Assembly: GCA_030625885.1 (NCBI GenBank)
Contig: DAOUPZ010000015.1
Location: 1 to 64,000 of the forward strand
DNA: 64,000 bases
From: Clostridia bacterium
GTDB lineage: Bacteria > Bacillota > DAOUPZ01
Reading direction: 5' to 3'
In this document: positions 4,528-36,318 of the stretch, piece after piece
Numbering within the stretch: position 1 is the stretch's first letter
How the letters are laid out: every line of letters starts with the position of its first letter
Notes under the pieces: generated by a model
Told to the model about the DNA's origin: nothing
Seen by the model: only the letters and a program-made list of their open reading frames with translations
Database searches by the model: none
Position numbers and translations under genes: made by a program

Positions 4528-5352
4528 ATGAAGTATAAACTGAGCATTATTATCATGTTTTTTGCTATTTTCATATCGGGCTGTAATGCTGATCAAGAGG
4601 TTACAAGCGATGGTTTGCTCACCGTGAGCAAAATAACAGCAGCATTTTCTGAAAGAGGTATCATGCTGGAAAAAAGCGAGCAACCCGTTCCCGATATATT
4701 AACCTTGAACGGGATTAAGCCGAAATTATTTAAAATGACGAATATTAATAATAATGACACGCTGGTATATGTTTTTGATTCCTATTCAGAGCGCAAAGAA
4801 GCAGTTGATGAATATAAGAAAAGAATGGAGGAATTTGGAAAACAATTTGCAAAAGAAGCGGCTATCCCATATAAATATGAAGCGAAGAATGCCATTATTT
4901 TTGTTGTGTATTCAATAGAAGATATCGTGAGTAGTGATCATCAAATTAAAAATATTGGCGACATTGTTTTTGAAAAACTTAACGATGGAAAATATATTAC
5001 TTTTAGGGGAGAAGGTACGGATTGGGAAGCGACAATTGAGTTTAAATACTATGAAAATAAATATACACATGAGAATGGCCGTATTGGATATGACCAATTT
5101 CATTGGAAACAGCCAATTTTAAAATACAAAAAAAGCAATATTGAAGATGTGGGCAAAGTATCTTATGAATTTACGAATGGATCTTGTGAATCAAGTTCAT
5201 CTGGAGATTCTTTGGATCAAGACGGTTATATCTATGATGTATATGGGGGAAGTGGTATCGGCGCAGATGAAAATTCGGTTTGTACGATGACCATTAGATG
5301 GAACGATAAAGAGGAAACATTTGAGCTTAAGGCCGAGCAGCATGGTAAGTAG
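4528..5352 (+). CDS. Lipoprotein, paralogue A of three
   Basis: 274 residues with a lipoprotein signal (lipobox FISGC, Cys19), so anchored on the outer leaflet. Closely related to the proteins at 14126-14947 and 23579-24427. Shared blocks are ADQEVTSDGLLT, SEQPVPDILTLNGIKPKLFKMT, the D/N-rich INNNDTLVYVFDSY, a charged helix (EYKKRMEEF), GEGTDWEATIEFKYYENKYT and a C-terminal TIRWNDKEETFELKAE. The family is unknown to me. The C-terminal half looks like an all-beta domain. Start ATG 4528 has GGGAGGGG upstream. Downstream lie a P element and the next operon. Three copies with different upstream genes point to duplication inside this replicon. Confidence 0.7.
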   Translation: MKYKLSIIIMFFAIFISGCNADQEVTSDGLLTVSKITAAFSERGIMLEKSEQPVPDILTLNGIKPKLFKMTNINNNDTLVYVFDSYSERKEAVDEYKKRMEEFGKQFAKEAAIPYKYEAKNAIIFVVYSIEDIVSSDHQIKNIGDIVFEKLNDGKYITFRGEGTDWEATIEFKYYENKYTHENGRIGYDQFHWKQPILKYKKSNIEDVGKVSYEFTNGSCESSSSGDSLDQDGYIYDVYGGSGIGADENSVCTMTIRWNDKEETFELKAEQHGK

Positions 5353-6532: not shown

Positions 6533-7765
6533 ATGAAAATCCTTCATACTTCTGATTGGCATTTAGGTAAAGTGCTGGAAGGATACAGCAGACTTCCGGA
6601 GCAGGAAAAATTTATAGAAGAGCTCATTGAAATAGCGGATAATCAAGATGTGGATTTAGTTCTTATTGCCGGGGATGTTTACGATACGGTCAATCCATCG
6701 TCCCAAGCGGTTACATTATTTTATAACACGTTGAAAATCCTTTCCAAAAATGGGGAACGGCCTATTGTTGTGATTGCGGGAAATCATGATAGTCCCGAAC
6801 GGTTGATGGCAGCCAGTCCTTTAGCACGTGATTACGGCGTCATATTGTTGGGGAAGCCAAATAGTGAGGCCATGACCGGGGAATACGGCAGCGTGATGAT
6901 TGAAGAAGCCGGGGAAGGGTATATCAAGATACAGCTTAATGGGGAAAAAGCCGTTATTTTAACCCTTCCCTATCCAAGCGAGAAGCGCTTAAATGAAATC
7001 TTAACCGAAGAAGCGGATGAATCCGTGCGGCAAAAAAGCTACTCCGAGCGTGTCGGCACGTTCTTTAAAAAACTGTCCAAGCATTTTGAACAGGATACGA
7101 TCAATCTGGCCCTCTCTCATCTTTATATGATTCAAGGGGAGGAATGCGGCTCAGAAAGAGATATTCAACTGGGCGGCAGCTTTGCCGTTGATACCTGCAT
7201 GCTGCCAGATGCCCAATACATTGCACTGGGACATTTACATCGACCGCAAAAAGTAGCGGGAATGGGGAACCGGGCATTTTATAGTGGTTCTCCCATACAG
7301 TACAGTCGGTCAGAAATTAACTATAGTAAATGTGTTTATGTTGTAGACGTGAAACCGGGTGAAGAGCCGCAGGTAGAAGAAGTTTTATTGTGCAATTATA
7401 AACCCATTGAAGTTTGGGAATGTGAAAGTATAGAAGCAGCACTGCAAAAATGTGCGGATCATCAAGAAGGCGAGCGATGGGTCTATCTGGATATCAAAAC
7501 AGATCGACCGTTACATCAGGAAGAAATTAAAGAAATGAAAAGCTTGCGGAAAGATATCGTATCGATTACGCCGGTTTTCCCTGATAAAGATGATGAATCC
7601 GGAAATGAAATGATTGATTATAAGCAGTTCAAAATTGATGAGTTATTTGAACGTTATTATAAAGAAAAAATAGGGGCAGAAGCGCCGGCTGAAATTATGG
7701 ATTTATTTTATGAAATTGCGCAGGAGGTGGGGAGCGAAGATGAAGCCGATCCAATTAAAGATTAG
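6533..7765 (+). CDS. sbcD: Exonuclease SbcD (Mre11-like nuclease subunit)
   Basis: 410 residues, the normal size. Metallophosphoesterase motifs appear in order: SDWHLGK (Asp8, His10), GDVYD (47-51), GNHDSPERL (83-91), SHLYMIQG and GHLHRPQ, which bind the two catalytic metals. With SbcC it forms the SbcCD complex, which cleaves hairpins and protein-blocked DNA ends in the cytosol. ATG 6533 has GAGGTG upstream. The coding region overlaps sbcC by 26 bp, consistent with a translationally coupled operon. The upstream dyads at 6421-6474 may control both. Confidence 0.95.
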   Translation: MKILHTSDWHLGKVLEGYSRLPEQEKFIEELIEIADNQDVDLVLIAGDVYDTVNPSSQAVTLFYNTLKILSKNGERPIVVIAGNHDSPERLMAASPLARDYGVILLGKPNSEAMTGEYGSVMIEEAGEGYIKIQLNGEKAVILTLPYPSEKRLNEILTEEADESVRQKSYSERVGTFFKKLSKHFEQDTINLALSHLYMIQGEECGSERDIQLGGSFAVDTCMLPDAQYIALGHLHRPQKVAGMGNRAFYSGSPIQYSRSEINYSKCVYVVDVKPGEEPQVEEVLLCNYKPIEVWECESIEAALQKCADHQEGERWVYLDIKTDRPLHQEEIKEMKSLRKDIVSITPVFPDKDDESGNEMIDYKQFKIDELFERYYKEKIGAEAPAEIMDLFYEIAQEVGSEDEADPIKD

Positions 7766-10700
7766 CGGGTTAAACAGCTTTGTAGAAAAGCAAACGATTG
7801 ACTTTACGCGCCTCACGGAAAGAGGGTTATTTGGTATCTTTGGTCCTACGGGCAGCGGCAAATCAACGATTTTAGATGGGATTACATTGGCCATGTATGG
7901 ACAAGTTCCTCGTGCGGGGAAGAAACCGACGGGAATTGTCAATGCTTTATCGGATAATATTCATGTCGTATACGATTTTGCGATTGGCGATGGTGAGAAC
8001 CGTAAAACGTATTCAATCAAACGAATTTTGAAAAGAAAAGATAATGATGGTGTCAGTACAAAGGAAGCCCTAATTTGTGATATGACCAACCCCGATGATC
8101 CACAGGTAATCAAGCAAGGGTATAAGGAGGTCAATTCAGGTATTGAAGAAATCATTGGGTTAACCGTTGATGATTTTACCCGTTCCGTTGTGCTGCCTCA
8201 GGGAAATTTCAGTGAATTTTTGCAGCTGAGTGGTGCAGGACGGCGGGAAATGCTGGAACGTATTTTTGGTCTCGAAAAGTACGGGAAAGATATGATGACC
8301 AAAATATCCCGTTATAAAAGCAAAAAGAAGGCCAAGCGTGATCAATTAGATGGTGCTTTAAGTACGCTGGGAGATATAGCACCGGAGGATGAGAAACGGT
8401 TGGAAGATGAAATCATTCAACTTCAAGAAAAAGAAAAAGGCTTGGTAGAAGCTAGGGACAATGTTGAAAATGATTATGAAAAATATCAGCAGATTTGGCA
8501 GTGGCAGGAGGAGCTGAAAGGATATCAGTTAAAACAAGAACAATTTGAGACGAAAAAAGACGATGTTTTAGCAAAAGAACAGACTTTACTGCGTGCAGAA
8601 AAGGCAGTGCTAATCAAACCCTGCATTAATAAAATAAAGCAAAAAGAAGAAGAATTGACTGCAGAAAATGAAGCGTTATCCCATCTAAAAAAAGAATTAG
8701 ATGATATTTCCGGAACATTAGAGATCACGCAGCAGAAACGGGCAGATGCCTTAGCAAGAAATAATAATGAGTTAATTATCCTATTGGAAAAACGTAGTCA
8801 ACTTCAACAAGCGGTAGAAACCAATCAAAAAATGATGGATTTGGAGCAAGAAAAGCACGATATCGAGGAAGAATTTCAAAAAGTTACAACTGAATTAAAT
8901 GAAAAACAGGATAAGTCCTTTGCATTTACAGATGAAATAAAAGATAAGAGGGAATCATTGCAGAATATTGAAGAAAAAATTTCTGCTATAAAAATTACTG
9001 CCGATGAACGAAATAAATTAAGTGAAGCCTATAATATAGAAGAAAGCTATAATGCTTTGCTAAAAGAACAAGACGGGTTGCAGGAGGATATTGATTTTTT
9101 AGAAACCAATTATACAGAAACAGAAGCAAAGATTGCTGAATTAACCGGAAAAATAGATGAAAAAGAGCAAGATTACCAACAAATTTTGGACAAGAAAGAA
9201 GACTTAGAAAATGATTGTCCGGGTACCAAAGAAGTATTGCTCCAACAACAAAAGATTTTGCAGGATTTGGGTCATGAAATAGAAACATTAACAGATTTAG
9301 CGGTAAGCAGGGCGGATTTAGTACAGGAAATAGCTGAACGACAGAATCAAAAGCTGGTTTTGGAGAATGATTTGAAATTAGATAAGGAAATGCTTGCTAA
9401 GCAGCAAAGCAAGGTTGATCTGATTAGCGATAATATCAGTAAAATACAAGAAAAGAACATGGCTGGTATTCTCGCACAGAAGTTAAAGGAAGGGTATCCC
9501 TGCCCGGTGTGCGGTGCTGCACATCATCCTGTTATGGCCGGTACATATGATGGTGAGGAAATAGATAAGCTCAAACAGGATAAAGAAAATGCTGAGAATG
9601 AATGTCAGTTACAGCGCGATAAGGTTTGTCAACTGGATGTGGAATTAAAAACATGCCAGATAGGTGAGGAAAACAAGGCACAGGAGATCGAAAAACTGGA
9701 AGAAGAAATCGCTGACAGGGATGTGGCAGCCCTCCGGGAAATGCAGGAAAGAAAACAAACAGAATTTGAACAATTACAGAAAGATATTGAAGCGTATGAA
9801 AGTAATATTAAGAAAAATAATGAAGCAATATCATCTTTAGAACAAGAATTGGGAGAACTGCGCAATCAGCATGCGGCAGAACAGGCGGCATACGAGAAGG
9901 ATGAAGCATCACTGGAAAAAGTACAAAGCAAAGAGAAAGCATTAAAACAACAAATACAGGAAAAACTGCAGGCATATGAAGAAGCCAAAGAAGCTCTCGG
10001 GTTAGAAAATGTTGCTGAGCGGTATAAAGTGGTACGTCAAAATGATATTGAAATTGAACAATTAGAAGAAGAAGGAAACCGTATTAAGGAAGACGTTAGC
10101 AAGCTGGAAGAACAGAAGGCGAGCTTTACAGAGCAAGTTAACGTTTTGCAAATGGAAAAAGCTAAACACGAAAGCAGCATCAGGGAGAAAAAAGCAAATA
10201 TTGCTGAAAATAAAGAAAAAGTTACTCAATTAAGTGGAAAACAAGAGCCTGTTGCTTATCTGGAAGAGGTAGAAAAAGAAATAAAAGAGATTAATGATAC
10301 TTATAAACACTATAATGAACGCTATGAAACAGAAAAGAAATTGCAGGAAGGAAAAAGCCGGTGTTATTCCAATCAATCAGCAGCAATCGATATGCTGCAA
10401 AAAGTTTTAAAACAAGAGCAAGAATTGTTACAGGAGAAGCTGACGGCAGATCACTTTGAAAGTGTATCAGAGATATTAAGCGGTTATCGTGAAGAGAGAG
10501 AAATAAAAGAACTGCGTCGTACCATTACGGAATATAATGATCAAGTGAAGATTAATGTCAGTAACATCGAAAGTATTTTGTTGAAATTAAACGGGCAATC
10601 CATTGAAGAAGCAGCATGGCATGAACTTCATGAAAAGAGAGAAAAGCTAAAAGCGGATTTAGATCAAATTAAAGAACAATTAATTGAAAAGCAAAAAGAC

Positions 10701-11279
10701 CTAAAAGTTTTAGCGGCTAAATTGGCGCAATACAATATTTGGTTAGCAGAAAAGAAAGCGGTTGATCATAAATATGGCTTGTTAGAAGATTTGGAAAGTT
10801 TGTTTAAAGGGAAAAAGTTTGTGGAGTTTATTGCCAAAACGCAATTAAGCTATCTTGCTAAAGATGCCTCCCGGAAATTAAAAGATATTACACGCGGCCG
10901 GTATGCTCTGGAGTTAAATACAGAAGGTGAATTTATTATGCGGGATGATTTCAATGGCGGCGCGAGAAGACCGACCCATACATTATCGGGTGGGGAGACG
11001 TTTTTGACATCTCTTTCGCTGGCACTGGCTCTATCGTCGCATATTCAATTAGGAAAATCATCTTTGGAGTTTTTTTTCCTGGATGAAGGGTTCGGAACCC
11101 TTGACTCAGATTTGCTGGATATAGTGATGAATTCGCTCGAACGGCTGCATTCGGAGAAATTGAGTGTCGGGATCATCAGTCATGTGGAAGAATTGAAACA
11201 GAGAATTCCCCGCAAGCTGATTGTCCAGCCGGCTGTAGCGGGTGTTTGCGGGACACGAGTTGAGATTGAGGAGAGTTAG
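7740..11279 (+). CDS. sbcC: Exonuclease SbcC (Rad50-like ATPase subunit)
   Basis: 1179 residues. Walker A GPTGSGKST at 35-43, two long charged coiled coils, a zinc hook CPVC at 588-591, ABC signature LSGGETFLTS, and Walker B FFFLDEGFGTLD near the C-terminus: the full Rad50/SbcC layout. ATP binding by paired heads opens DNA ends to SbcD; the zinc hook joins two coiled coils. ATG 7740 is 10 nt after GGAGGTGG and lies inside the sbcD end. An upstream in-frame ATG at 7710 would lie deep in sbcD and lacks a ribosome site. The gene ends with a low-complexity GAGTTAGAGG tract, and a terminator follows at 11399. Confidence 0.95.
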   Translation: MKPIQLKISGLNSFVEKQTIDFTRLTERGLFGIFGPTGSGKSTILDGITLAMYGQVPRAGKKPTGIVNALSDNIHVVYDFAIGDGENRKTYSIKRILKRKDNDGVSTKEALICDMTNPDDPQVIKQGYKEVNSGIEEIIGLTVDDFTRSVVLPQGNFSEFLQLSGAGRREMLERIFGLEKYGKDMMTKISRYKSKKKAKRDQLDGALSTLGDIAPEDEKRLEDEIIQLQEKEKGLVEARDNVENDYEKYQQIWQWQEELKGYQLKQEQFETKKDDVLAKEQTLLRAEKAVLIKPCINKIKQKEEELTAENEALSHLKKELDDISGTLEITQQKRADALARNNNELIILLEKRSQLQQAVETNQKMMDLEQEKHDIEEEFQKVTTELNEKQDKSFAFTDEIKDKRESLQNIEEKISAIKITADERNKLSEAYNIEESYNALLKEQDGLQEDIDFLETNYTETEAKIAELTGKIDEKEQDYQQILDKKEDLENDCPGTKEVLLQQQKILQDLGHEIETLTDLAVSRADLVQEIAERQNQKLVLENDLKLDKEMLAKQQSKVDLISDNISKIQEKNMAGILAQKLKEGYPCPVCGAAHHPVMAGTYDGEEIDKLKQDKENAENECQLQRDKVCQLDVELKTCQIGEENKAQEIEKLEEEIADRDVAALREMQERKQTEFEQLQKDIEAYESNIKKNNEAISSLEQELGELRNQHAAEQAAYEKDEASLEKVQSKEKALKQQIQEKLQAYEEAKEALGLENVAERYKVVRQNDIEIEQLEEEGNRIKEDVSKLEEQKASFTEQVNVLQMEKAKHESSIREKKANIAENKEKVTQLSGKQEPVAYLEEVEKEIKEINDTYKHYNERYETEKKLQEGKSRCYSNQSAAIDMLQKVLKQEQELLQEKLTADHFESVSEILSGYREEREIKELRRTITEYNDQVKINVSNIESILLKLNGQSIEEAAWHELHEKREKLKADLDQIKEQLIEKQKDLKVLAAKLAQYNIWLAEKKAVDHKYGLLEDLESLFKGKKFVEFIAKTQLSYLAKDASRKLKDITRGRYALELNTEGEFIMRDDFNGGARRPTHTLSGGETFLTSLSLALALSSHIQLGKSSLEFFFLDEGFGTLDSDLLDIVMNSLERLHSEKLSVGIISHVEELKQRIPRKLIVQPAVAGVCGTRVEIEES

Positions 11280-14086: not shown

Positions 14087-14125
14087 TATTATTTTAACAC
14101 CTATCAAGTTAAGAGGAGGATGTTT

Positions 14126-14947
14126 ATGAAGTTCAAAACTGGCATTGTTCTAATAATGGTTTTTGCTTTTTTGATGTCGGGCTGTAACGCTGATCAAGAC
14201 GTTATAAACGACGATTTACTCACCATAAGCAAAATAACAACGGCATTTTATGAAAACGGGATTATGTTGGATAAAAGTGAGAAATCGGTTCCCAATGTGT
14301 TGAACCTGAATGGGATTAAACCGAAATTATTTAAAATGACGGATATTAATAATAATGATACACTGGTATATATTTTTGATTCCTATTTAGAGCGCAAAAA
14401 AGCAATTGATGAGTATAAGAAAAGAAGGGATAAATTTATAAAACCATTTGTAAAAGAAGCGGCTAACCCATATAAGTATGAAGCGAAAAATGCCATTATC
14501 TTTGTTGCGTTTCCGATGAAAAATTTAATAAGCAGTGAACATCATATTAAAAATATAAGTAATACTGTTTTTGAAAAACTTAACGATGGAAAATATATGA
14601 CGTTTAAGGGTGAAGGTACGGATTGGGAAGCTAGAATTGAGTTCAAGTACTATGAGAATAAATATACCGATAAAAATGGCGGTATTGCATATGACCAAGT
14701 TTATTGGGAACAACCGGTTTTAAAATACAAAAAGAGTAATATAGAGAGTGTTGGTAAAGTATCTTATGAATTTAGCGCTGAGACGGGTGGCTCAAGCTCA
14801 GCTTCAAGATTTTTGACTCAAGACGGTTATATCTATGGTGTACATGAGGAAAGTTCTGGTGTCAGACCGGATGAAAATTCGGTTTATAAGATCACCATCA
14901 GATGGAACGGCAAAGAAGAAATATTTGAGCTTAAGGCAGAGCAATAA
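14126..14947 (+). CDS. Lipoprotein, paralogue B of three
   Basis: 273 residues, lipobox LMSGC with Cys20. It keeps the blocks of paralogue A (NADQDVINDDLLT, VPNVLNLNGIKPKLFKMT, NNNDTLVYIFDSY, GEGTDWEARIEFKYYENKYT, TIRWNGKEEIFELKAEQ) but differs in the middle helix and in a Ser-rich insert (ETGGSSSASRF). ATG 14126 is preferred over ATG 14120 because GAGGAGG ends only 1 nt before the latter. Upstream only a broken DUF2500-like relic remains, so this copy seems to have lost its partner genes. A GA-rich word tract follows (14945-15000). Confidence 0.7.
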   Translation: MKFKTGIVLIMVFAFLMSGCNADQDVINDDLLTISKITTAFYENGIMLDKSEKSVPNVLNLNGIKPKLFKMTDINNNDTLVYIFDSYLERKKAIDEYKKRRDKFIKPFVKEAANPYKYEAKNAIIFVAFPMKNLISSEHHIKNISNTVFEKLNDGKYMTFKGEGTDWEARIEFKYYENKYTDKNGGIAYDQVYWEQPVLKYKKSNIESVGKVSYEFSAETGGSSSASRFLTQDGYIYGVHEESSGVRPDENSVYKITIRWNGKEEIFELKAEQ

Positions 14948-23512: not shown

Positions 23513-23578
23513 AACAATTTTTCAGGTATTAAGAAATACATGATGTATAACGTTAAAAAGATCAGGGGAGGAATGGAT

Positions 23579-24427
23579 ATGAGATATAAATTGAGCATTA
23601 TTATCATGGTTCTTGTTGTTTTCATGTCGGGTTGCAGCGCTGATCAAGAGGTTACAAGCGATGGCTTTCTTACCTTAAATAAGATAACAGCGACATTTTC
23701 TGAAAGCGGTATCATGCTGAAAAAAAGCGAGCAACCCGTTCCCGATATATTAACTTTGAATGGGATTAAGCCGAAATTATTTAAAATGACGAATATTAAT
23801 AATAATGATACATTTGTATATATTTTTGATTCCTACTCAGAGCGTCAAAAAGCAGGTGATGAATATGAGAAAAAACGGGAGGAATTTGAAAAATTATTTG
23901 CAAAAGAACCGGCTATGCCATATAAATGTGAAGCGAAGAACGTCATTATTTCGGGTGCGTATTCAATAGAAGAGTATTCAAAAGAAGATATAATAAGTAG
24001 TGTTCATCAAATTAAAAATATTGGTGATATTGTTTTCGAAAAACTTAACGATGGAAAATATATGACTTTTAAGGGAGAAGGTATAGATTGGGAAGCAACA
24101 ATTGAGTTGAAATACTATGAGAATGAATACATACATGAGAATGGAAGTATTGATTATGACCAATATCATTGGGAACGCCCCATTTTAAAATATAAAAAAA
24201 GTGATATTGAAAATGTTGGTGAAATTTCTTATAAATTTACCGATGAAATGGGTAGCTCACAAAGTTCATCTGGAAAATCCTTGGATCAAGACGGTTATAT
24301 TTATGGTTCACATACGGGAGGTAATGGTTCCAGGTCAGATGAAAATTCGGTTTATACGATGACCATCAGATGGAAGGAAAAAGAGGAAACATTTGAGCTT
24401 AAGGCAGAACATCAGGGTAAAAATTGA
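23579..24427 (+). CDS. Lipoprotein, paralogue C of three
   Basis: 282 residues from ATG 23579; GGGGAGG ends 7 nt upstream, whereas the in-frame ATG at 23540 and 23573 are poorly placed. Lipobox FMSGC with Cys19. Shares with paralogue A the blocks ADQEVTSDGFLT, SEQPVPDILTLNGIKPKLFK, NNNDTFVYIFDSYSERQ, GEGIDWEATIELKYYENEY and TIRWKEKEETFELKAE, and has a short insert (EEYSKED) before the central ISSVHQIKNIGD. It is closer to A than to B by eye. Function unknown. A GA-rich tract (24422-24480) follows, as after paralogue B. Confidence 0.7.
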   Translation: MRYKLSIIIMVLVVFMSGCSADQEVTSDGFLTLNKITATFSESGIMLKKSEQPVPDILTLNGIKPKLFKMTNINNNDTFVYIFDSYSERQKAGDEYEKKREEFEKLFAKEPAMPYKCEAKNVIISGAYSIEEYSKEDIISSVHQIKNIGDIVFEKLNDGKYMTFKGEGIDWEATIELKYYENEYIHENGSIDYDQYHWERPILKYKKSDIENVGEISYKFTDEMGSSQSSSGKSLDQDGYIYGSHTGGNGSRSDENSVYTMTIRWKEKEETFELKAEHQGKN

Positions 24428-25561: not shown

Positions 25562-25655
25562 AAGTCAATGAACTTTTTGTAATAAATTCGTCTTATTGGT
25601 GCATGATATTTTTATAACATACCAACAGTGTTATATTTCATATAGAGGTGATTTT

Positions 25656-26069
25656 ATGGGTTTTGGGAATCGTTTAAGAGAATTACGGCTTGAGCGAAAA
25701 ATGACACAAGAGGATTTGGCGAAAATTGCAAAAGTTGCTAGAGCGACAATTGGTCGTTATGAAACAGATGAAAGGTTTCCTGACCAGGAAGTATTAAAAA
25801 AACTGGCTAACTTTTTTGAGATAAGTATTGATTGGCTGTTAGGGGAAACTAACATTCGTTATCCCAAAGGTTACGAAAATCAACTCATAGCTCATAAAGA
25901 AATCGAGAAAATACTTCAGGATATTGAAACAGCCCTTCTAAATACGGAAGGTTTGCTTTTAAATGGGGAACTGGTTTCGGAAGAAACAAAAAGAAAGATT
26001 ATTGATGCTATGAAAATTGGAATGGAGATGGCAAAGAAGGAAGCAAAGGGAAAAGATGATTCTAAATAA
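25656..26069 (+). CDS. XRE-family transcriptional regulator
   Basis: 137 residues from ATG 25656 (AGAGGTGATTTT upstream; the ORF is open further but has no other ribosome site). Residues 3-65 are a typical Cro/CI-type helix-turn-helix: FGNRLRELRLERKMTQEDLA, then RATIGRYETDERFPDQEVLKK, ending in ISIDWLLGETN. The C-terminal half is helical and acidic (HKEIEKILQDIETALLNTEG). The type resembles repressors of mobile elements and stress switches. It faces the Spo0E-like gene across a region with a clear inverted repeat, so it may tie sporulation timing to its signal. A terminator follows at 26091. Confidence 0.85.
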   Translation: MGFGNRLRELRLERKMTQEDLAKIAKVARATIGRYETDERFPDQEVLKKLANFFEISIDWLLGETNIRYPKGYENQLIAHKEIEKILQDIETALLNTEGLLLNGELVSEETKRKIIDAMKIGMEMAKKEAKGKDDSK

Positions 26070-26804: not shown

Positions 26805-27098
26805 ATGGTTTTATCTAAATTAGAAACAGCTATTAAAGAGAGAAAAAAGGTATCATTGATGTACAAAGGAGTTTTAAGAATAATTGAGCCATATTTAGTG
26901 GGAATCAACACAAAAGGTAACGAATCTCTTAGAGCATATCAAATTGGTGGATATAGTTCGTCTGGAAACCTGCCGGCATGGAGATTATTTTTATTTGAAG
27001 ATATTGAAGATATTGAAGTTTTGGATGATCACTTCGAAATCAATGATAAATATAATCATAATGACAGGGGTATGCGTAGCATTTTGTTCAGAGTATAG
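26805..27098 (+). CDS. Stand-alone WYL-domain-like protein
   Basis: 97 residues. LETAIKERKKVSLMYKGVLR, IIEPYLVGINTKGNESLRAY and QIGGYSSSGNLPAWRLFLF match the WYL fold (beta barrel; here YQIGG and WRLF positions), a ligand-sensing module common in regulators of defence systems. There is no helix-turn-helix, so it would sense a ligand rather than bind DNA itself, or act on the next protein. GTGGAGGGAAG precedes the ATG. It ends 23 bp before the OLD-family nuclease, so the two are very probably one operon. A dispersed-repeat mosaic lies upstream. Confidence 0.75.
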   Translation: MVLSKLETAIKERKKVSLMYKGVLRIIEPYLVGINTKGNESLRAYQIGGYSSSGNLPAWRLFLFEDIEDIEVLDDHFEINDKYNHNDRGMRSILFRV

Positions 27099-27121
27099 CC
27101 TGTTTGGAAGGATGCGTAGGT

Positions 27122-29011
27122 ATGAAAATAAAATCAATTAGCATTCAAAATTATAAGTGCCATAAGAGTATAAAAGATATGCCTTTTCATGATTTGACAA
27201 CTATTATAGGAGAAAATGATAGTGGGAAAACTGCAATTATTGACTTTTTAGAAATTATGCTAACAAATTCTATTCCCAAAGTAGACGATTATTATAGATC
27301 AATAGAAATTAACTCAGCAGATGATACACCACAAGAAGTTGCTCAAGAAAGAATTATTGGTGAGATAAAGTTTTCTTTAGATACAAACGAAAAAGAAGCA
27401 CTTGCAAGTTATTTAGATGATAAAAAAGATTTAATATTGAAAAAAGTTTTTACCACAGAAAATAACAATACATATTATTATTCAAAAAAATATAGCGATG
27501 ATAGATTTTATGAATATGAGAGTATGAATGCAGGAAAATTAAAAGATTTTTTAGAGGATTTAGGGCTACGAAAAGAAAATAATCAAGATTTACGAAAGAT
27601 AGCTATAAAAAAATATATGGAAGAAACTGAAATTCCATATTCATTTGAGTGGATAGAAATTCAGTTTATGACAATTAAGGGATTCCTCCCTAAATTTATA
27701 AGATATAATGTTGATGATTATAAGAACCCAAATAATATGATATTCAAGGTATTACAAGAGGTTTTTAAAAATGAGATATATACTAAGAGAGAAGATGGAA
27801 CATATCACTTAAAGGATGAGGGTTTAAAAACTATTTTGGAAGAAGTAAGGTTAAAAATTGTTGAGTCTGCTCAGCAGTTCAAAAAGCATATCCAAAAGTA
27901 CAATGATAAAATATTAGATATAACCATTGAACCTGAAATTGATTTGAGTTCAGGATTAAAACAATCACCGATAAGGGTGAAAGATGAAACAGGGCTTTTT
28001 CATTACATAGACAATAGAGGATTTGGAACTAAAAAACGTATTTTCATGGCTATTTTTGAATGGAATAAAGAAGTTGTTGCTGGTATTGATCATGAATATG
28101 CAATACGATGCTATGATGAACCAGATAATAATCTACATATTGAAGCACAGAGAAAGTTATACAAAACAATAAAATCTATTGTAGATGAAACAAATCAAAA
28201 AAATCAAGTTCTTATATGTACCCATTCACTTTTTATGATAGATTCATCACCTGCAAATTCGATAAATCTTATTAAAAGAAATGGTAGTGGTAGTACAATT
28301 GTTGAATATTTAAAATCATTTGGAGACGAGGAAATCCAGAATTTTATTGAACTAATGTGTAGAGAAATGGGGTTATCCAATAGTCATATTTTTTTCGAAA
28401 GATGTTTCATTATAGTAGAAGGACAGTCTGAAGTGAATTTTCTTCCTTCAGCATACAAAAAAATGTATCATTCTACTATGGCAGAAGATGGAATAACATT
28501 GATTAATTTAGAGGGTAATGGAGCTGCGACAAATTTTTTGAAGCTTTTAATGAAAAACAAAAGAGAGTTTGTTATAGTTTTTTTAGATAATGATACTACA
28601 GATGTCAGAAAAAGCAAGGTGATGTCTGGGCATAACAAATTAGTTGATGGGATGAAAAAAGAAGAGTATAAACAATTTGTATATGATTTTTTTGAGGAAA
28701 AAGTATTATTCATTGGAGATAAAGAATTTGAGGATACATTTGAAAATGAAGTTTTTGTAAAAGTGTTAAATAATAAAAGACCTAAAAACAATGAATTACT
28801 TTGGAATGAAGAAGAAATAGAAAATATACGTATAAATGTGGAGAAATTTTCAAATGGTATAACAAAAGCTGTAGCGGATTTTTGTAAACCCAATTATATT
28901 AGTAAGCCAGAACTAGGAACGTATTTAGGGCAAGGTATTGAAATAGATGAAATACCTGAAAAAGCAAAAGAATTATTTCGTAGAGCTAGGGAGATAGCAA
29001 ATATTGAATGA
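27122..29011 (+). CDS. OLD-family ATP-dependent nuclease (ABC ATPase plus TOPRIM)
   Basis: 629 residues. The N-terminal ABC-type ATPase has Walker A GENDSGKT at 30-37 and a Walker B/D-loop region (AIRCYDEPDNNLHIEAQRKL) followed by the switch-like ICTHS. After SNSHIFFERCFIIVEGQSEV (Glu433) comes a TOPRIM domain with FLDNDT (Asp489, Asp491), the metal site for nicking or cutting DNA. This is the overcoming-lysogenisation-defect layout, class 1 in being without an adjacent helicase. Relatives defend against phages; the exact trigger is unknown. ATG 27122 is chosen; the in-frame TTG at 27104 lies close to GGAAGG. Strongly AT-rich compared with addB downstream, which suggests transfer. It follows a WYL gene by 23 bp. 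Confidence 0.85.
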   Translation: MKIKSISIQNYKCHKSIKDMPFHDLTTIIGENDSGKTAIIDFLEIMLTNSIPKVDDYYRSIEINSADDTPQEVAQERIIGEIKFSLDTNEKEALASYLDDKKDLILKKVFTTENNNTYYYSKKYSDDRFYEYESMNAGKLKDFLEDLGLRKENNQDLRKIAIKKYMEETEIPYSFEWIEIQFMTIKGFLPKFIRYNVDDYKNPNNMIFKVLQEVFKNEIYTKREDGTYHLKDEGLKTILEEVRLKIVESAQQFKKHIQKYNDKILDITIEPEIDLSSGLKQSPIRVKDETGLFHYIDNRGFGTKKRIFMAIFEWNKEVVAGIDHEYAIRCYDEPDNNLHIEAQRKLYKTIKSIVDETNQKNQVLICTHSLFMIDSSPANSINLIKRNGSGSTIVEYLKSFGDEEIQNFIELMCREMGLSNSHIFFERCFIIVEGQSEVNFLPSAYKKMYHSTMAEDGITLINLEGNGAATNFLKLLMKNKREFVIVFLDNDTTDVRKSKVMSGHNKLVDGMKKEEYKQFVYDFFEEKVLFIGDKEFEDTFENEVFVKVLNNKRPKNNELLWNEEEIENIRINVEKFSNGITKAVADFCKPNYISKPELGTYLGQGIEIDEIPEKAKELFRRAREIANIE

Positions 29012-29351
29012 GATTATAATATTTAGGAAACTAAGGGATCAGGGGATAGGTACATAGCCCCTAAATACAATGGATGATAAAGTGATAGTTAGTAGTTATA
29101 ATGAATTTGCTTACATATTAAAGAAACTGCAGTTCAAGTGATATGCTGAAACCCATCATAAGTAAAAATTACGCTAAACCATAAACTCACCCTATCACAA
29201 ACGCGCAACCTATCTTCTCCCACCTCCTACCTCCTACCTGCTGATCGCTACCCACTAAAAAAACCGCCACGGCGGTTTTTCTATTTTGCAGGATTCTATT
29301 TACAAAAAATAGAATTCCCCCATATCACCTCTTACAAAGGAGTCTATAACA
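29012..29351. other. Gap between OLD nuclease and addB
   Basis: 340 bp with no gene. It has a CT-rich word tract (29215-29250, CACCTCCTACCTCCTACCTG) and the terminator at 29257-29284. The AddB ribosome site AAAGGAG is at 29335-29341. Confidence 0.6.
29257..29284. terminator. Terminator-like hairpin before addB
   Basis: AAAAAACCGCC pairs with GGCGGTTTTT around AC, T run after. 245 bp after the OLD gene; it insulates addAB from upstream transcription. Confidence 0.8.
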
Positions 29352-32300
29352 ATGACCATTAAATATATATTCGGCCGTTCAGGCCGAGGCAAAACACATT
29401 ACGTTTTTGAGCAAATCAAGGAAAGCTTGCAGCGGGATGAAGAACATCCTTTAATTCTGCTGGTGCCGGAGCAAATTACCCATCAGACCGAGCGGGATAT
29501 CATTGAAAAATTGCAGCTGCCGGGAATGATGCGGCTGCAGGTTTTGAGCTTTTCGCGGTTGGGGCATCACGTCTTAAATGAAGTCGGCGGGCGTACGCGG
29601 ACGGTGATCAATCAGCAGGGGAAGAACATGGTACTGCGCAAAGTGCTGGACGAATGCTGCGGCGAGCTTTCGATCTATCAAAAGGCGGCGAAGCAGGACG
29701 GGTTTGTGGCGCGGATGGCGGATTTTTTGGGACAGTTGAAACAGCATGCGGTTTCGCCGGAGGATTTGCAGGAAAAGGTGGACATGATGGAAGCAGGCGG
29801 GGCAGCTTGCCGGAAGCTGCAGGATATTGCTGTGATTTATGAGCGGTTTAACCGGTATCTGGAAGGACGTTATCTAGATAATGAGGATGTTGTGAATGCT
29901 TTTATTGCGCGGATGGCGGAATTCGGCAGCTTGCAGGGGGCGGTGGTGTGGATTGACGGGTTTACGACTTTTACGCCGCAGACTTTGCAAATTATTGAAC
30001 AGATCATGGTGCTGGCGGGGGAGACGACATTTACCTTTCCTTTTAACCCGGCTGTCGCGGAAGCGGACAGCGATTTATTTGAACGGGTGCAGGAGACGTA
30101 TGCGCGGGTGGATAAAATCGCGCAGCGTCATGGTCTGCAGGCAGAAACACTCAACCTGAACGAGACGTATCCATCAGCCTTTAAGTGCGCATGTTTGCAG
30201 CATTTGGAGCGGGAGTTTTTTGCGTATCCCCATCAGTTGTATGATGAAGCGGTGGGTGATATGGATGTATTTGCAGCGAGCGGCACGAATACGGAAATGG
30301 AGCATGTGGCTGCGCAAATTCTCAATCTGGTGCGGGATAAAGGCTATCGCTGGAAAGACATTGCGGTGGTTTGCGGTGATCTGGCGTGTTACACCAGCCT
30401 CATCCGGCGGACGTTCAATGAGAACAACATCCCTTACTTTATGGATCAACGGCGGGATATCATGGATCATCCCATTATTGAATATATCCTCTCTTTACTC
30501 GAAATGGTTTACCGCAACTACCGCTATGAACCTGTCTTTTGCTTTCTGAAAACCGGGTTTAGTGATCTGACTGCGGATGAAGTGGAAAAATTGGAAAACT
30601 ATGTTTTGCAGTACGGGATTGAGGGGAAGCAGTGGCAGGAAGCGTTCCGGTATGGGGATGCTGAAACTTTAGCAGAACTGAATCTCTGCCGGGACAAATT
30701 CATGGGTTCCATCATGGAATTTGCCCGGGGTGTCAAAGGGAAACAGGCGGTTGCGGAAATGACCACGGCTTTGTATGAACATCTGGTCAGTAGCGGTATA
30801 TATGAAAAGCTGACCGCGTGGATTGAAACTTTGCGGGCGCGTGGTTTCCATGAAGCGGTGGGGGAAAATACGCAGATTTGGAATACGGTGATGGAGATAT
30901 TGGATCAGGTGGTAGAAATTTTAGGGGATCAAATCGTGACGGTACGGGAATATAAGCGGATTCTGGAAGCCGGTTTTTCCGCGTGTGAAATCGGATTGAT
31001 TCCTCCGACATTGGATCAGGTACTGGTGGGACAGATGCAGCGATCCAAAAGCCATAGCATCAAAGCGTTGTTTGTGGTGGGGGTCAACGATGGCATCCTG
31101 CCGAATGGAAAAAACGACGAGCGGGTATTAGCGGAAGAAGAGAAAGTGCGGCTCAAAGAAAAGGGGCTGGATTTGGGCACGGATCATCAAACGCAAGCGG
31201 CGGAAGAACAGTTTTCCATCTATCAAGCGTTGACAAAACCCGATGCGTATCTTTGGGTCAGTTTTGCGCTGGCAAATGGGGAAGGTAAGGCGCTGCGGCC
31301 TTCTATTTTCATCGATCGTTTTCAAAAATTATTTTCCCAATTAGAGATCAAAAGTGATGGGCTCAATACGCCTGAAAATCAGCTGCAAATGGTGTGTTCC
31401 CCGCAGATGACCTTCAAACATTTAATTGAAAACCTGCGGCTGCATCTGGATGGCACGCCCGCAGCGAATTTCTGGTGGGATGTATACCGCTGGTATGATC
31501 AGCAGGATGACTGGTGTTCTCATAAAACAGCCGTTCTTAAAGGCTTTTTCCATCAAAACCAGACCGATACGATCGAGCAGTTTCAGGCGCAAGCACTGTA
31601 TGGGCTGCCGCTGCATGCCAGTGTTTCCCGGTTGGAGCAGTTTGGCAACTGCCCGTTTGGTCATTTTGTTAAATACGGCCTACAGCCGGAGGAACGGCAG
31701 GTACGGGAAATCGGCGCGCCGGATATCGGGCTCATTTTCCACGCGGCGTTAAACAAATTTAGTCAATCGCTGGTGCAGCAGAAATTGGTGTGGCGGGAAC
31801 TGGAAAAAGAACCGTGCTGTGCGCTGATGGACAGCATAATGGATGAACTGGCTGGGAAATATGAGAATGGCATCCTGCTTAGCAGCCAACCGTATCAAAA
31901 TATGGTCAGCCGCTTAAAACGGGTGATGCGCCGTGCGGTGTGGGTTTTGACGGAGCATATTAAAAAGGGTGATTTTAATCCTCTGGAGCATGAAGTCAGT
32001 TTTGGGGCACAAGGACAGCTGCCGGCGTTGGTATTAGAGCTGGACAGCGGGGACAAGGTTTATCTGGAAGGCAGAATAGACCGGGTTGACCTCTTGGATA
32101 ACGGTGAAGACAGCTATGTCCGGATTATTGACTATAAATCGGGCGATAAGAAACTCAGTTTATCCGATGTCTATCATGGGTTGGCACTGCAGTTGATGGT
32201 GTACTTGAGTGCCGTTTTAGACAGCGGCGATGCTTTAAGCAGCAAATCCTTAAAACCGGGCGGGGTCTTTTATTTCCGGCTGGATGACCCGCTCATTGAA

Positions 32301-32753
32301 ACCGCAGAAATGGATGATGCGGAGATTGAACGGGAAATCCGTAAAAAACTGAAGATGAGAGGGCTGGTTTTAGAGGACATCCGGGTGGTGCGTTGGATGG
32401 ATCGTGATATCCAGACCCGTTCCGAGATTATCCCGGTAGCGATTGGGAAAGAAGACAAATTTCATAAAAGTTCGGCGGTGGCAGGGGAAACTGATTTTCA
32501 GGCCCTGCTCGCGCATGTCAAAGGATTGGTCAAAGACCGGAGTGAAGCGCTGCTGGGGGGCGATATTCGCATTGCGCCGGTCAAGAACGGTCAGCAGACA
32601 GCGTGTGATTATTGTCCTTATGCAGCGATCTGCCAGTTTGACGGCTGGTTTGAAGATAATGGTTATCATGTGATTAAAGCGCTAAAAGATGAAGATGTTT
32701 TGGCACGAATGACAGCACAAGAGGGGGTGACGGTTGATGGTGAACTGGACTAA
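29352..32753 (+). CDS. addB: ATP-dependent helicase/nuclease subunit B (AddB)
   Basis: 1133 residues, the usual size. Walker A-like GRSGRGKT at 8-15, a long inactive-helicase body, and a C-terminal RecB-type nuclease (LEGRIDRVD, VRIIDYKSGDKK). The four Cys that bind the AddB iron-sulfur cluster are visible: Cys767 (FGNCPFGH) and Cys1085, 1088 and 1094 (CDYCPYAAIC). AddB cuts the 5'-ended strand and reads Chi while AddA unwinds, making 3' ends for RecA. The ATG has AAAGGAG upstream. The C-terminal end overlaps addA by 17 bp. Clearly richer in G and C than the genes to its left. Confidence 0.95.
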   Translation: MTIKYIFGRSGRGKTHYVFEQIKESLQRDEEHPLILLVPEQITHQTERDIIEKLQLPGMMRLQVLSFSRLGHHVLNEVGGRTRTVINQQGKNMVLRKVLDECCGELSIYQKAAKQDGFVARMADFLGQLKQHAVSPEDLQEKVDMMEAGGAACRKLQDIAVIYERFNRYLEGRYLDNEDVVNAFIARMAEFGSLQGAVVWIDGFTTFTPQTLQIIEQIMVLAGETTFTFPFNPAVAEADSDLFERVQETYARVDKIAQRHGLQAETLNLNETYPSAFKCACLQHLEREFFAYPHQLYDEAVGDMDVFAASGTNTEMEHVAAQILNLVRDKGYRWKDIAVVCGDLACYTSLIRRTFNENNIPYFMDQRRDIMDHPIIEYILSLLEMVYRNYRYEPVFCFLKTGFSDLTADEVEKLENYVLQYGIEGKQWQEAFRYGDAETLAELNLCRDKFMGSIMEFARGVKGKQAVAEMTTALYEHLVSSGIYEKLTAWIETLRARGFHEAVGENTQIWNTVMEILDQVVEILGDQIVTVREYKRILEAGFSACEIGLIPPTLDQVLVGQMQRSKSHSIKALFVVGVNDGILPNGKNDERVLAEEEKVRLKEKGLDLGTDHQTQAAEEQFSIYQALTKPDAYLWVSFALANGEGKALRPSIFIDRFQKLFSQLEIKSDGLNTPENQLQMVCSPQMTFKHLIENLRLHLDGTPAANFWWDVYRWYDQQDDWCSHKTAVLKGFFHQNQTDTIEQFQAQALYGLPLHASVSRLEQFGNCPFGHFVKYGLQPEERQVREIGAPDIGLIFHAALNKFSQSLVQQKLVWRELEKEPCCALMDSIMDELAGKYENGILLSSQPYQNMVSRLKRVMRRAVWVLTEHIKKGDFNPLEHEVSFGAQGQLPALVLELDSGDKVYLEGRIDRVDLLDNGEDSYVRIIDYKSGDKKLSLSDVYHGLALQLMVYLSAVLDSGDALSSKSLKPGGVFYFRLDDPLIETAEMDDAEIEREIRKKLKMRGLVLEDIRVVRWMDRDIQTRSEIIPVAIGKEDKFHKSSAVAGETDFQALLAHVKGLVKDRSEALLGGDIRIAPVKNGQQTACDYCPYAAICQFDGWFEDNGYHVIKALKDEDVLARMTAQEGVTVDGELD

Positions 32754-35700
32754 GGAACAGGAACAGGCGATTGCGGCACGCGGCAGCAATCTGCTGGTCG
32801 CGGCTGCGGCTGGCTCTGGTAAGACGGCCGTACTAGTGGAACGGATTATCCGGCTGATCATGGAGGATCGTATGGATATCGACCGGATGTTGATCGTGAC
32901 CTTTACTCATGCTGCTGCGGGAGAAATGCGGGAAAGAATCAGCGGGGCGATCATGGCGGAGATGGAAAAGAAAAATGAAAATGAAGCGCACCTGCGCCGC
33001 CAGCTCAAGTTGCTTAGCCGGGCGGCGATCAGCACGCTGCATGCTTTTTGTATGGATGTGGTGCGCAAGCATTTTCATTTAATCGATATGGACCCCAACT
33101 TTAGAATCGGGGATGATACGGAAACGACGTTGCTCAAGTGGGAAGCGCTGCAGGAAAGTTTTGCAGCTGCTTATGATGATCATGAAGCGGGATTTATTCG
33201 TTTGGGCGAGATGTTTGGGGGCAATAAAGATGATACGGTGCTGCAGGAACTGGTTTTGCGCTGCTTTGAATTTATTCAGAGTCAGCCGTATCCTTTACAG
33301 TGGTTGGCGGAAAAAACAGGTATGTTTGATTTGCAGCCGGAGGATTTAGAGCAAAGTCAGTGGGTGCAGGTGATCAAAGCGCAATTAAACATGGAATTAG
33401 CGGGAGCCAAAGCGTTGTTTAGTGAAGCCTATCACCTGACGGAAATGCCGGGCGGGCCGGATGGGTATCAAAAAGCGATAGCGGCGGATCTAGAGATGGT
33501 AGATGATTTAACGGCGGCACTGGCGCAGGGGCTGGATCAACTCTACGAACGGTTAGCGGGCGTAAAATTTACCCGTTTGGGGCGGGTTGGTAAAGAAGCG
33601 GACGAAGCGTTAAAAGAAGCGGCTAAGCATTTGCGAGATGATGGAAAAAAAGTGATCACGGGGATTCAAACGGGCATATTAACGCGCAGTCCGGAATCCT
33701 ATGCTCAGGATTTACAGGAAATGGCGCCGGCGATGCAAGCCTTAAACCACCTTGTTAATGATTTTACCGCCCGTTATCAGGCACAGAAACTGGAAAAAGG
33801 GCTGGTTGATTTTAATGATCTGGAACATAATGCTCTGGCCATCTTGTACGATGAAACCGTAGCGAGTGGGTATCGAGAGAAATTTGATGCGATATTTGTC
33901 GATGAATATCAGGACAGCAATCGGGTACAGGAAACGATTTTAAGTTTCATTAAAAGAGAAAATAATCTGTTTATGGTCGGGGATGTTAAGCAGAGTATTT
34001 ACCGTTTCCGGCTGGCGGAACCCGCTTTATTCCTGGAAAAATATGAAACGTTTGACCGGGAAGCAAACGCTTTAAACCGCCGCATTGATTTAAGCCGGAA
34101 CTTCCGCAGCCGGGGTGAAATTATCCATGGGGTCAATACCATTTTTCAGCATATCATGTCCCGTTCGTTTGGTGAAATCGACTATGATGAGGACGCCTAT
34201 TTGTATCAGGGATTAGAGGAGGAGGAAATGGATGATCCTGAGGTGGAATTGCATTTGCTAGAGAAAAATGCCGCTCAGGATGAAGGGGAAGACGCGTTAG
34301 AAGAGCTGGGGGATATCGAAGCCGAAGCGTGTATGGTCGCAAAGCGCATTAAGTCTTTGATTGGACAGCCTTTTTATGATGCGAAACAACAGGTGCAGCG
34401 AGAGATCACCTATCGGGATATTGTGGTCTTGCAGCGGAGTACGCGCAACTGGGCGCCAACGTTTTTGGAAACGTTGACAGCAGCCGGTATTCCTGCTTAT
34501 GCGGATGTGAATACCGGGTATTTTGAGGCCCTGGAAGTGAACGTGTTTCTCAATTTATTGAAGGTGATTGATAATAAACGGCAGGATATTCCGCTGCTGA
34601 GTGTGATGCGCTCTTCCATCGGCAAATTTACCATTCGTGATTTAATTGAGATCCGGCTTCATGGTCCGGGCAAGCCTTTTTATGAAGCGCTGGCAGGTTA
34701 TGCAGCCAATGGGTCAGGTGAACTGCAGGAGCGGGTGCAGCAGTTTATCAGCAGGCTCAATACGTGGAAAGAAGAAGCACGGCTGGATGCTATCGATACT
34801 TTCATCTGGAAGCTGCTGATTGATACCGGTTTTTATTATTATGTGGGTGCTGCCCCCGGGGGGAAACAGCGCCAGGCCAATCTGCGCATTTTGCTGGAGC
34901 GGGCGCAGCAGTTTCAGAACACCTCACTGCGCGGCTTATTTAATTTTATTCAATTTGTGGATCAGCTTCAGGATTCCGGTAACGATTTGGGAACCGCGAA
35001 AATTCTTGGGGAAAATGACAATGTGGTCCGCATTATGAGCATTCATAAAAGTAAGGGGCTGGAGTTCCCCGTGGTGATTGTGGCCGGGATGGGCAAACAG
35101 TTTAACCTGAGGGATACCAGTGCCCCCATATTGCTCCATAAAGATCTTGGGATCGGCCCTCGCTATGTCAATCCGGACTTGCGAGGTTACCGGGATACGA
35201 TTGCGCGCCTGGCACTTAAAAGTCAGATTAAGCTGGAAAGTTTGGCGGAAGAGATGCGCATCCTCTATGTGGCCTGTACCCGGCCGAAAGATAAATTGAT
35301 TTTGGTAGGGTCGGTAAGGAATATGGCAAGAACGGCGCAAAAGTGGGCGCAAGATATCAGTGCTTTTAACTTAGCGCGAGCCAAAAATACGCTGGACTGG
35401 GTATGCCCGGTCATAATGCGCCACAGTGATGGGGAGGCGCTGCGCGAACTGGCCGCTGTGTCCTGGGGGGAAGATCAGGTGTTTGAGGATGATTCCCGGT
35501 GGCAAGTTACCATTTGGGATCGCTTACAGCTGGAGCCGGAAACCTGTCATCTGAAGGTGACACAGGAAGATTTTGAAAAGTGGCTGCAGGATGTGGTCAG
35601 TCAAGATGGTACTGGAGATGATGGGTGCATCGCATCACGTTTTAACTGGCAATACAGCCATAAGGATGCATCGCAAATACCTTCTAAATTATCCGTGACC

Positions 35701-36318
35701 CAGCTTAAGCAGCTGCAGGCGAAAGATTTGGACAGCATCAGGACGCGTGCCGCTTCCCTGGTGCCCAGTCCTAAATTCATGGCGGAAAAGAAACCCTTGA
35801 CAGCAGCGCAAAAGGGTACGGTGATGCACTTTGTTCTGCAGCATCTGGATTTTCAGCGAGTCAGTGATGTCGGGGAAATACAGGAACAAATCGATAAGAT
35901 GGTTAAAAAGGAACTGCTTTTGGATGAAGAAGCGGCGGCTGCATCTGCTCGGAAAATATGGAGTTTCTTTGCTTCCAACTTGGGGCAGCGGGTTTTGAAA
36001 GCGCCAAAAGTATACCGGGAAGTACCGTTTAATCTGGTGCGCAAAGCGTGTGAAGTGATTGACGGATTGACGCAATGTGAGGAAGATGTGTTGATTCAAG
36101 GGGTGATTGACCTTTATTTTGTCGAAGGCGATGAACTGGTTTTGGTGGATTACAAGACGGATTATATCTGTGGGGAAAATACCAAGCATGATGTGCTAGA
36201 GAAATACAGGACGCAGCTTCTCTTATATAAAGAAGCGCTGGAACGGATTCAGGGCAAAAGGGTGAAAGAAAGCTATCTTTATCTGCTGTCTATTGGGGAA
36301 GCGGTAGAGGTGAGGTAA
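32737..36318 (+). CDS. addA: ATP-dependent helicase/nuclease subunit A (AddA)
   Basis: 1193 residues from ATG 32737 (GAGGGGGTGA upstream). Superfamily 1 helicase motifs are in order: AAAAGSGKT (22-30), TFTHAAAGEMRERI, DFNDLEHNAL, FVDEYQDSN, VGDVKQSIYRFR, the motif region MSIHKSKGLEFPVVIVAGMG and LYVACTRPKDKL. A RecB-type nuclease closes the protein (GVIDLYFVEGDELVLVDYKTD; Asp and Lys of the active site visible). AddA is the motor and the 3'-strand nuclease of AddAB, used for double-strand break repair. It overlaps addB; coupling is expected. Confidence 0.95.
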   Translation: MVNWTKEQEQAIAARGSNLLVAAAAGSGKTAVLVERIIRLIMEDRMDIDRMLIVTFTHAAAGEMRERISGAIMAEMEKKNENEAHLRRQLKLLSRAAISTLHAFCMDVVRKHFHLIDMDPNFRIGDDTETTLLKWEALQESFAAAYDDHEAGFIRLGEMFGGNKDDTVLQELVLRCFEFIQSQPYPLQWLAEKTGMFDLQPEDLEQSQWVQVIKAQLNMELAGAKALFSEAYHLTEMPGGPDGYQKAIAADLEMVDDLTAALAQGLDQLYERLAGVKFTRLGRVGKEADEALKEAAKHLRDDGKKVITGIQTGILTRSPESYAQDLQEMAPAMQALNHLVNDFTARYQAQKLEKGLVDFNDLEHNALAILYDETVASGYREKFDAIFVDEYQDSNRVQETILSFIKRENNLFMVGDVKQSIYRFRLAEPALFLEKYETFDREANALNRRIDLSRNFRSRGEIIHGVNTIFQHIMSRSFGEIDYDEDAYLYQGLEEEEMDDPEVELHLLEKNAAQDEGEDALEELGDIEAEACMVAKRIKSLIGQPFYDAKQQVQREITYRDIVVLQRSTRNWAPTFLETLTAAGIPAYADVNTGYFEALEVNVFLNLLKVIDNKRQDIPLLSVMRSSIGKFTIRDLIEIRLHGPGKPFYEALAGYAANGSGELQERVQQFISRLNTWKEEARLDAIDTFIWKLLIDTGFYYYVGAAPGGKQRQANLRILLERAQQFQNTSLRGLFNFIQFVDQLQDSGNDLGTAKILGENDNVVRIMSIHKSKGLEFPVVIVAGMGKQFNLRDTSAPILLHKDLGIGPRYVNPDLRGYRDTIARLALKSQIKLESLAEEMRILYVACTRPKDKLILVGSVRNMARTAQKWAQDISAFNLARAKNTLDWVCPVIMRHSDGEALRELAAVSWGEDQVFEDDSRWQVTIWDRLQLEPETCHLKVTQEDFEKWLQDVVSQDGTGDDGCIASRFNWQYSHKDASQIPSKLSVTQLKQLQAKDLDSIRTRAASLVPSPKFMAEKKPLTAAQKGTVMHFVLQHLDFQRVSDVGEIQEQIDKMVKKELLLDEEAAAASARKIWSFFASNLGQRVLKAPKVYREVPFNLVRKACEVIDGLTQCEEDVLIQGVIDLYFVEGDELVLVDYKTDYICGENTKHDVLEKYRTQLLLYKEALERIQGKRVKESYLYLLSIGEAVEVR

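What the first reader, a model, noticed from the sequence alone, without database searches (positions are those of the whole stretch)
26805..29011. WYL-domain protein paired with an OLD-family nuclease, a possible uncharacterised defence module
Seen: a 97-residue stand-alone WYL-like protein ends 23 bp before an ATPase-TOPRIM nuclease of the OLD family, both on the plus strand, AT-rich, between repeat-filled DNA and GC-richer addAB. Known: OLD nucleases act in anti-phage systems (P2 Old, Gabija GajA) and WYL domains regulate many defence loci. Inference: the WYL protein senses a nucleic acid or nucleotide ligand and controls the nuclease. Next to addAB is notable because P2 Old responds to loss of RecBCD.
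Basis: partly seen in the sequence, partly recalled or inferred. Interest (0 to 1): 0.65.

Follow-up and report, generated by a model that had tools for sequence, protein, structure and literature searches.

The report
OLD defence nuclease with WYL partner
A small WYL-fold protein is encoded directly in front of an OLD-family DNA-cutting enzyme, a pairing that recurs in unrelated microbes and is probably an uncharacterised anti-phage module in which the small protein tells the enzyme when to cut.

Summary
At 26805-27098 lies a 97-aa stand-alone WYL protein; 23 bp later comes a 629-aa OLD nuclease (27122-29011) with intact ATPase and TOPRIM motifs. The WYL assignment is weak by sequence (Pfam 15.1 bits, below cut-off) but firm by structure: the model (pLDDT 91) matches BrxR, DriD, PafBC and CapW WYL domains, all at Foldseek probability 1.00. 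Relatives of the small protein occur in bacteria and archaea. In 30 distinct loci found by that protein alone, an OLD gene lies within three genes in four: here, a Deinococcus plasmid (overlapping operon), a Rhodococcus plasmid (divergent) and a haloarchaeon (WYL-KTSC-OLD). In three more the next gene is an AAA_13 ATPase. KTSC, another small domain, can take the same place before OLD. The pairing is optional: none of 29 other OLD loci from the phylum has a WYL partner, and most small WYL genes have no OLD. The addAB neighbour looks incidental. Best reading: an exchangeable, probably nucleic-acid-binding accessory protein that licenses an OLD effector, not a transcription factor. Defence function, complex formation and ligand are untested. 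New variant of a known kind.

The parts
26805..27098 (+). Stand-alone small WYL-fold protein, 97 aa, no HTH
27122..29011 (+). OLD-family nuclease, 629 aa: ABC-type ATPase plus C-terminal TOPRIM
27099..27121 (+). 23-bp spacer with GGAAGGA ribosome-site-like sequence; suggests one transcript
   Evidence: sequence
27209..27232 (+). Walker A, GENDSGKT (OLD residues 30-37)
   Evidence: sequence and alignment
28115..28123 (+). Walker B acidic pair, DEP (OLD residues 332-334)
   Evidence: alignments
28415..28423 (+). TOPRIM glutamate motif, VEG (OLD residues 432-434, E433)
   Evidence: alignments
28583..28594 (+). TOPRIM D-x-D motif, LDND (OLD residues 488-491)
   Evidence: alignment
29259..29280 (+). 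Hairpin resembling an intrinsic terminator after OLD, before addB
   Evidence: 4 such sites found in the stretch, 1.8 expected in shuffles

Best explanation
A two-gene, horizontally acquired anti-phage module. The OLD protein is the effector: an ATPase-TOPRIM nuclease that cuts DNA. The small WYL protein is an accessory subunit, not a transcription factor: a single Sm-like barrel that binds a nucleic-acid cue (for example single-stranded DNA or exposed ends on invading DNA) and licenses or directs the nuclease. The same slot can be filled by a KTSC domain, and the same WYL family can serve other ABC-type effectors. Shown here: gene order, WYL fold, OLD domains with intact catalytic motifs, recurrence. 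Inferred: defence role, physical complex, ligand, direction of control.
For: OLD domains and motifs. WYL fold without HTH. Recurrence: Deinococcus wulumuqiensis pDrdII has WYL overlapping an OLD gene by 4 bp; that OLD is 24% identical to the window's over its length, E 1e-35. Rhodococcus WYL is divergent to an OLD. A haloarchaeon has WYL, KTSC, OLD in a row, next to GmrSD and Mre11-Rad50 genes. Three loci have an AAA_13-type ATPase directly after WYL; the two I scanned match PADLOC candidate PDC-S06. KTSC directly precedes OLD on a Haloferax plasmid with no WYL detected beside it. OLD density in the phylum is 35 genes per 200 genomes; four of 27 WYL loci near an OLD has chance about 1e-10, or 1e-5 if defence clustering raises the rate 20-fold (rough model). 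Precedent for a WYL accessory that boosts a nuclease: RspWYL1 with Cas13d (PMC6547453); WYL domains that bind ssDNA: PafBC, DriD (PMC11804915).
Against: No function was measured. None of 29 other OLD loci from 200 genomes of the phylum has a WYL or KTSC neighbour in the stretch fetched, and 26 of 30 small WYL loci have no OLD nearby, so neither gene needs the other in general. The window protein has a single Arg in the strand where I place PafB's R-x-x-R pair for ssDNA, so the known ssDNA site may not be kept (my placement, not a tested alignment). No usable model of the OLD protein or of the complex could be made.
Confidence: 0.5

Rival explanations
1. Toxin-antitoxin-like control: OLD is toxic and the WYL protein holds it inactive until infection or DNA damage removes or binds it.
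For: Small gene directly before a potentially toxic nuclease, overlapping in Deinococcus. P2 Old kills recBC cells (PMC10568477).
Against: WYL also sits before AAA_13 ATPases and near Mre11-Rad50 genes, which is unusual for a dedicated antitoxin. Most OLD genes in the phylum do without it.
Confidence: 0.2
2. The WYL protein is a regulator of transcription, for example partner of the HTH protein encoded at 25653-26069.
For: WYL domains are mostly in transcription factors (PMC4012209); an RstR-like HTH gene lies upstream on the same strand.
Against: No DNA-binding domain in the 97 aa. About 735 bp and a dispersed repeat separate it from the HTH gene. I saw no HTH partner recurring next to the gene in the other WYL-OLD loci.
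Confidence: 0.12
3. Chance neighbours inside a variable, gene-gaining region; the two proteins act independently.
For: Region is AT-rich and repeat-bearing. Each gene occurs mostly without the other.
Against: Tight spacing here and in Deinococcus, and repeated placement beside ABC-type effectors in several phyla.
Confidence: 0.15

Closest known systems
Class 1 OLD nucleases (P2 Old, Thermus scotoductus OLD 6P74)
   Same: ATPase-TOPRIM architecture; 6P74 is the best PDB match
   Different: Class 1 is defined as a single gene (PMC10568477); here there is a recurring partner gene
Gabija (GajA/GajB, class 2 OLD)
   Same: OLD nuclease in a two-gene unit; GajA models match
   Different: Partner is a WYL protein, not a UvrD-like helicase; the helicase gene further on is addA, a housekeeping gene
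PARIS (AriA/AriB)
   Same: The ATPase half matches PADLOC AriA best, E 5.8e-44
   Different: TOPRIM is fused to the ATPase here; no separate AriB
RspWYL1 accessory of Cas13d
   Same: WYL protein that assists an effector nuclease (PMC6547453)
   Different: RspWYL1 has RHH and C-terminal domains and an RNA-guided partner; this one is a bare barrel
WYL transcription factors (BrxR, CapW, DriD, PafBC)
   Same: Same fold
   Different: They are 190-640 aa chains with further domains, DNA-binding ones among them; none here

Membership tests
OLD-family nuclease | ABC-type ATPase domain with Walker A and B | tested here: met
   AAA_15 E 1.7e-39; GENDSGKT and DEP conserved
OLD-family nuclease | C-terminal OLD TOPRIM with E and DxD | tested here: met
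   PF20469 E 4.9e-11 over cut-off; E433, D489, D491 conserved
OLD-family nuclease | DNA cleavage activity | not testable with these tools
   needs purified protein
Class 1 OLD | single gene without partner | tested here: not met
   WYL gene 23 bp upstream, recurring pairing
[quoted passage not shown]
   next genes are addB and addA, matching the addB_Gpos and addA_Gpos equivalog models over cut-off
PARIS | separate AriB TOPRIM protein | tested here: not met
   TOPRIM is in the same polypeptide; the neighbouring ORFs are WYL and addB
Retron (class 3 OLD) | reverse transcriptase and ncRNA beside OLD | tested here: not met
   Neighbouring genes are WYL, an HTH protein and addB; no Rfam match in the window
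WYL domain superfamily | Sm-like SH3 barrel of WYL type | tested here: met
   pLDDT 91.2 model; top 20 PDB matches all WYL proteins, probability 1.00, TM 0.61-0.69 over the query
WYL domain superfamily | Pfam WYL score over cut-off | tested here: not met
   15.1 against 21.8 bits; divergent subfamily
WYL transcription factor | DNA-binding HTH or similar domain | tested here: not met
   97 aa, one helix plus barrel
WYL ssDNA sensor (PafBC, DriD) | Arg pair required for ssDNA binding | tested here: inconclusive
   one Arg (R60) in AWRLFLFEDI; the pair's place was inferred, not aligned residue by residue; R25 is kept in the aligned family

The most novel reading that the evidence does not exclude
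Bare WYL barrels, with KTSC as an interchangeable alternative, form a general plug-in sensor subunit for ABC-ATPase defence effectors (OLD nucleases, AAA_13 PDC-S06 proteins, Mre11-Rad50-like pairs) across bacteria and haloarchaea.
Probability: 0.3. Interest if true: 0.72.

Novelty: new variant of a known kind. Interest (0 to 1): 0.52.

Why it matters
[quoted passage not shown] A small partner that recurs beside some of them suggests that part of 'class 1' is really two-component and offers a direct handle on the trigger. WYL proteins without a DNA-binding domain might also act on effectors rather than on promoters. The three full-text searches I ran for a WYL-OLD pairing turned up no title or passage describing it in what I read; a major survey of ABC-ATPase conflict systems was not held, so an earlier mention cannot be excluded.

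Tried and rejected
Broader WYL alignments could not be used for collection scans, for lack of conserved stretches; the one genome-contig scan used a narrow pattern and gave 7 loci. OLD scans of viral contigs found nothing. Single-sequence fold of OLD failed, pLDDT 32, discarded. Sequence-level matching of the WYL family to PDB gave nothing useful, so ssDNA-site residues could not be mapped by sequence; E. coli YfjR as a bridge also failed. The Caballeronia WYL beside an ABC protein was rejected as support: the neighbour looks like UvrA. The 75-aa gene after WYL in Flavobacterium has no KTSC match and was dropped. Promoter scan near the pair is at chance level.

Full report
What is there. OLD matches AAA_15 (1.7e-39) and OLD-like_TOPRIM (4.9e-11) over their cut-offs. 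Walker A (GENDSGKT), Walker B (DEP), TOPRIM E433 and D489/D491 are kept in alignments with relatives. In the PDB the best match is Thermus OLD 6P74; in PADLOC the best are AriA, Old and GajA.

The small protein. By sequence the WYL call is weak (15.1 bits, cut-off 21.8), but 11 of 13 relatives hit the same Pfam family. Foldseek's first 20 PDB matches are BrxR, DriD, PafBC and CapW, all at probability 1.00 (E 3e-3 to 4e-2, TM to the query 0.61-0.69); Sm proteins follow. It is therefore a bare WYL barrel without a DNA-binding domain. No WYL gene reached E 0.001 in this genome with the Pfam model, which also misses this divergent one.

Relatives. tblastn and profile searches found relatives in Deinococcus, haloarchaea, Aliarcobacter, Bacteroidota, Actinomycetota, Cyanobacteria, Proteobacteria and Gemmatimonadota. 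The family is sparse: 2 of 399 genomes of the window's phylum, this one included, with the single-sequence query. Across the aligned family an R-x-x-E (R25, E28), a Q (Q46) and a W (W59) are the most constant residues.

Neighbours. The loci were found with the WYL protein, not with OLD, so neighbours are not selected for. Of 30 distinct loci (34 minus four duplicates), an OLD gene lies within three genes in four: the window; Deinococcus pDrdII, overlapping by 4 bp, its OLD 24% identical to the window's at E 1e-35; Rhodococcus, divergent; and a haloarchaeon with WYL, then KTSC, then OLD. In three loci the next gene, at -4 to +11 bp, is an AAA_13-type ATPase (Aliarcobacter, a Bacteroidota MAG, Winogradskyella; the third by its likeness to the second); the first two match PADLOC's candidate PDC-S06. 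Three related haloarchaeal loci, including the one just named, have Mre11-Rad50-like genes divergent to WYL, and Aliarcobacter has an SbcC-like gene directly before it. KTSC genes lie beside or one short ORF away from WYL in three loci (Pfam E 1.3e-26 for one; the others by a profile), and KTSC alone precedes OLD on a Haloferax plasmid and in a second haloarchaeal genome that was not among the WYL matches. The Bacteroidota locus carries a canonical WYL (2.1e-8), KTSC, small WYL and AAA_13 in series.

Chance. OLD TOPRIM genes number 35 in 200 genomes of the phylum. With about 2700 genes per genome (my round figure), four of 27 loci near an OLD has probability near 1e-10; allowing 20-fold enrichment by defence clustering, about 1e-5; 100-fold, 0.005. 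This is a rough model with a ±2-gene window, not a matched control, and the haloarchaeal and plasmid loci sit in gene-gaining DNA.

Limits of the pairing. None of 29 other OLD loci fetched from those 200 genomes has WYL or KTSC beside it, although many of the fetched stretches end a few hundred bases above the OLD start, so a partner further upstream could be missed. Most small WYL loci lack OLD. The pair is one recurrent arrangement of two modular genes, not an obligate system.

addAB. addB and addA are genuine, but the Deinococcus, Rhodococcus and haloarchaeal pairs show no addAB in the stretches fetched, GC changes sharply at the border (28% to 46%) and a hairpin resembling a terminator lies between. 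SbcD- and SbcC-like ORFs lie 18 kb upstream (by resemblance, not scanned), so the pair may sit in an island that split an addBA-sbcDC neighbourhood; this is inference.

Mechanism. My preferred reading is an accessory barrel that binds a nucleic-acid cue and licenses the OLD nuclease. It rests on the absence of an HTH, on the exchange with KTSC (called DNA-binding in PMC9503650 and RNA-binding in PMC7824862), on WYL domains that bind ssDNA (PMC11804915) and on RspWYL1 boosting Cas13d (PMC6547453). A warning: PafB and PafC each carry a conserved arginine pair three residues apart, and PafB's (R211/R214) is needed for ssDNA binding; the window's corresponding stretch, as I place it, has one arginine. 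The ligand may differ. Gabija, whose GajA is an OLD protein, acts on DNA not engaged by RecBCD (PMC12407980, preprint), which makes the AddAB experiment worth doing whatever the gene order means.

Verdict. Observation confirmed, interpretation partly supported, function untested. New variant of a known kind: an OLD nuclease in a partner context outside the three classes reviewed in PMC10568477.

Noticed in passing
window 24511, 25096, 26526, 3303, 42464, 48759 and others: Dispersed GGGGACATTCC-type repeat, 9 matches against 1.5 expected; three copies lie just upstream of the WYL-OLD pair. Origin unknown, possibly REP-like.
   Followed up: partly
window 4528-5352, 14120-14947, 23540-24427: Three similar lipoprotein-like ORFs (GCNADQ/GCSADQ) spread over the variable region; the third has no Pfam match.
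   Followed up: no
window 6533-11279 and 29352-36318: SbcD/SbcC-like ORFs and addB/addA on one strand, 18 kb apart, with AT-rich variable DNA between them.
   Followed up: no
L055:3693-7978: Schlafen AlbA_2 protein with a C-terminal KTSC domain, followed by a separate KTSC gene, a small WYL gene and a 618-aa protein with no significant family.
   Followed up: partly
L020:5508-8567: Canonical WYL, KTSC, small WYL and AAA_13 ATPase encoded in series in a Bacteroidota MAG.
   Followed up: partly
L011:417-1836 (minus strand): The only other small WYL found in the phylum sample precedes a 342-aa protein with no Pfam match.
   Followed up: no
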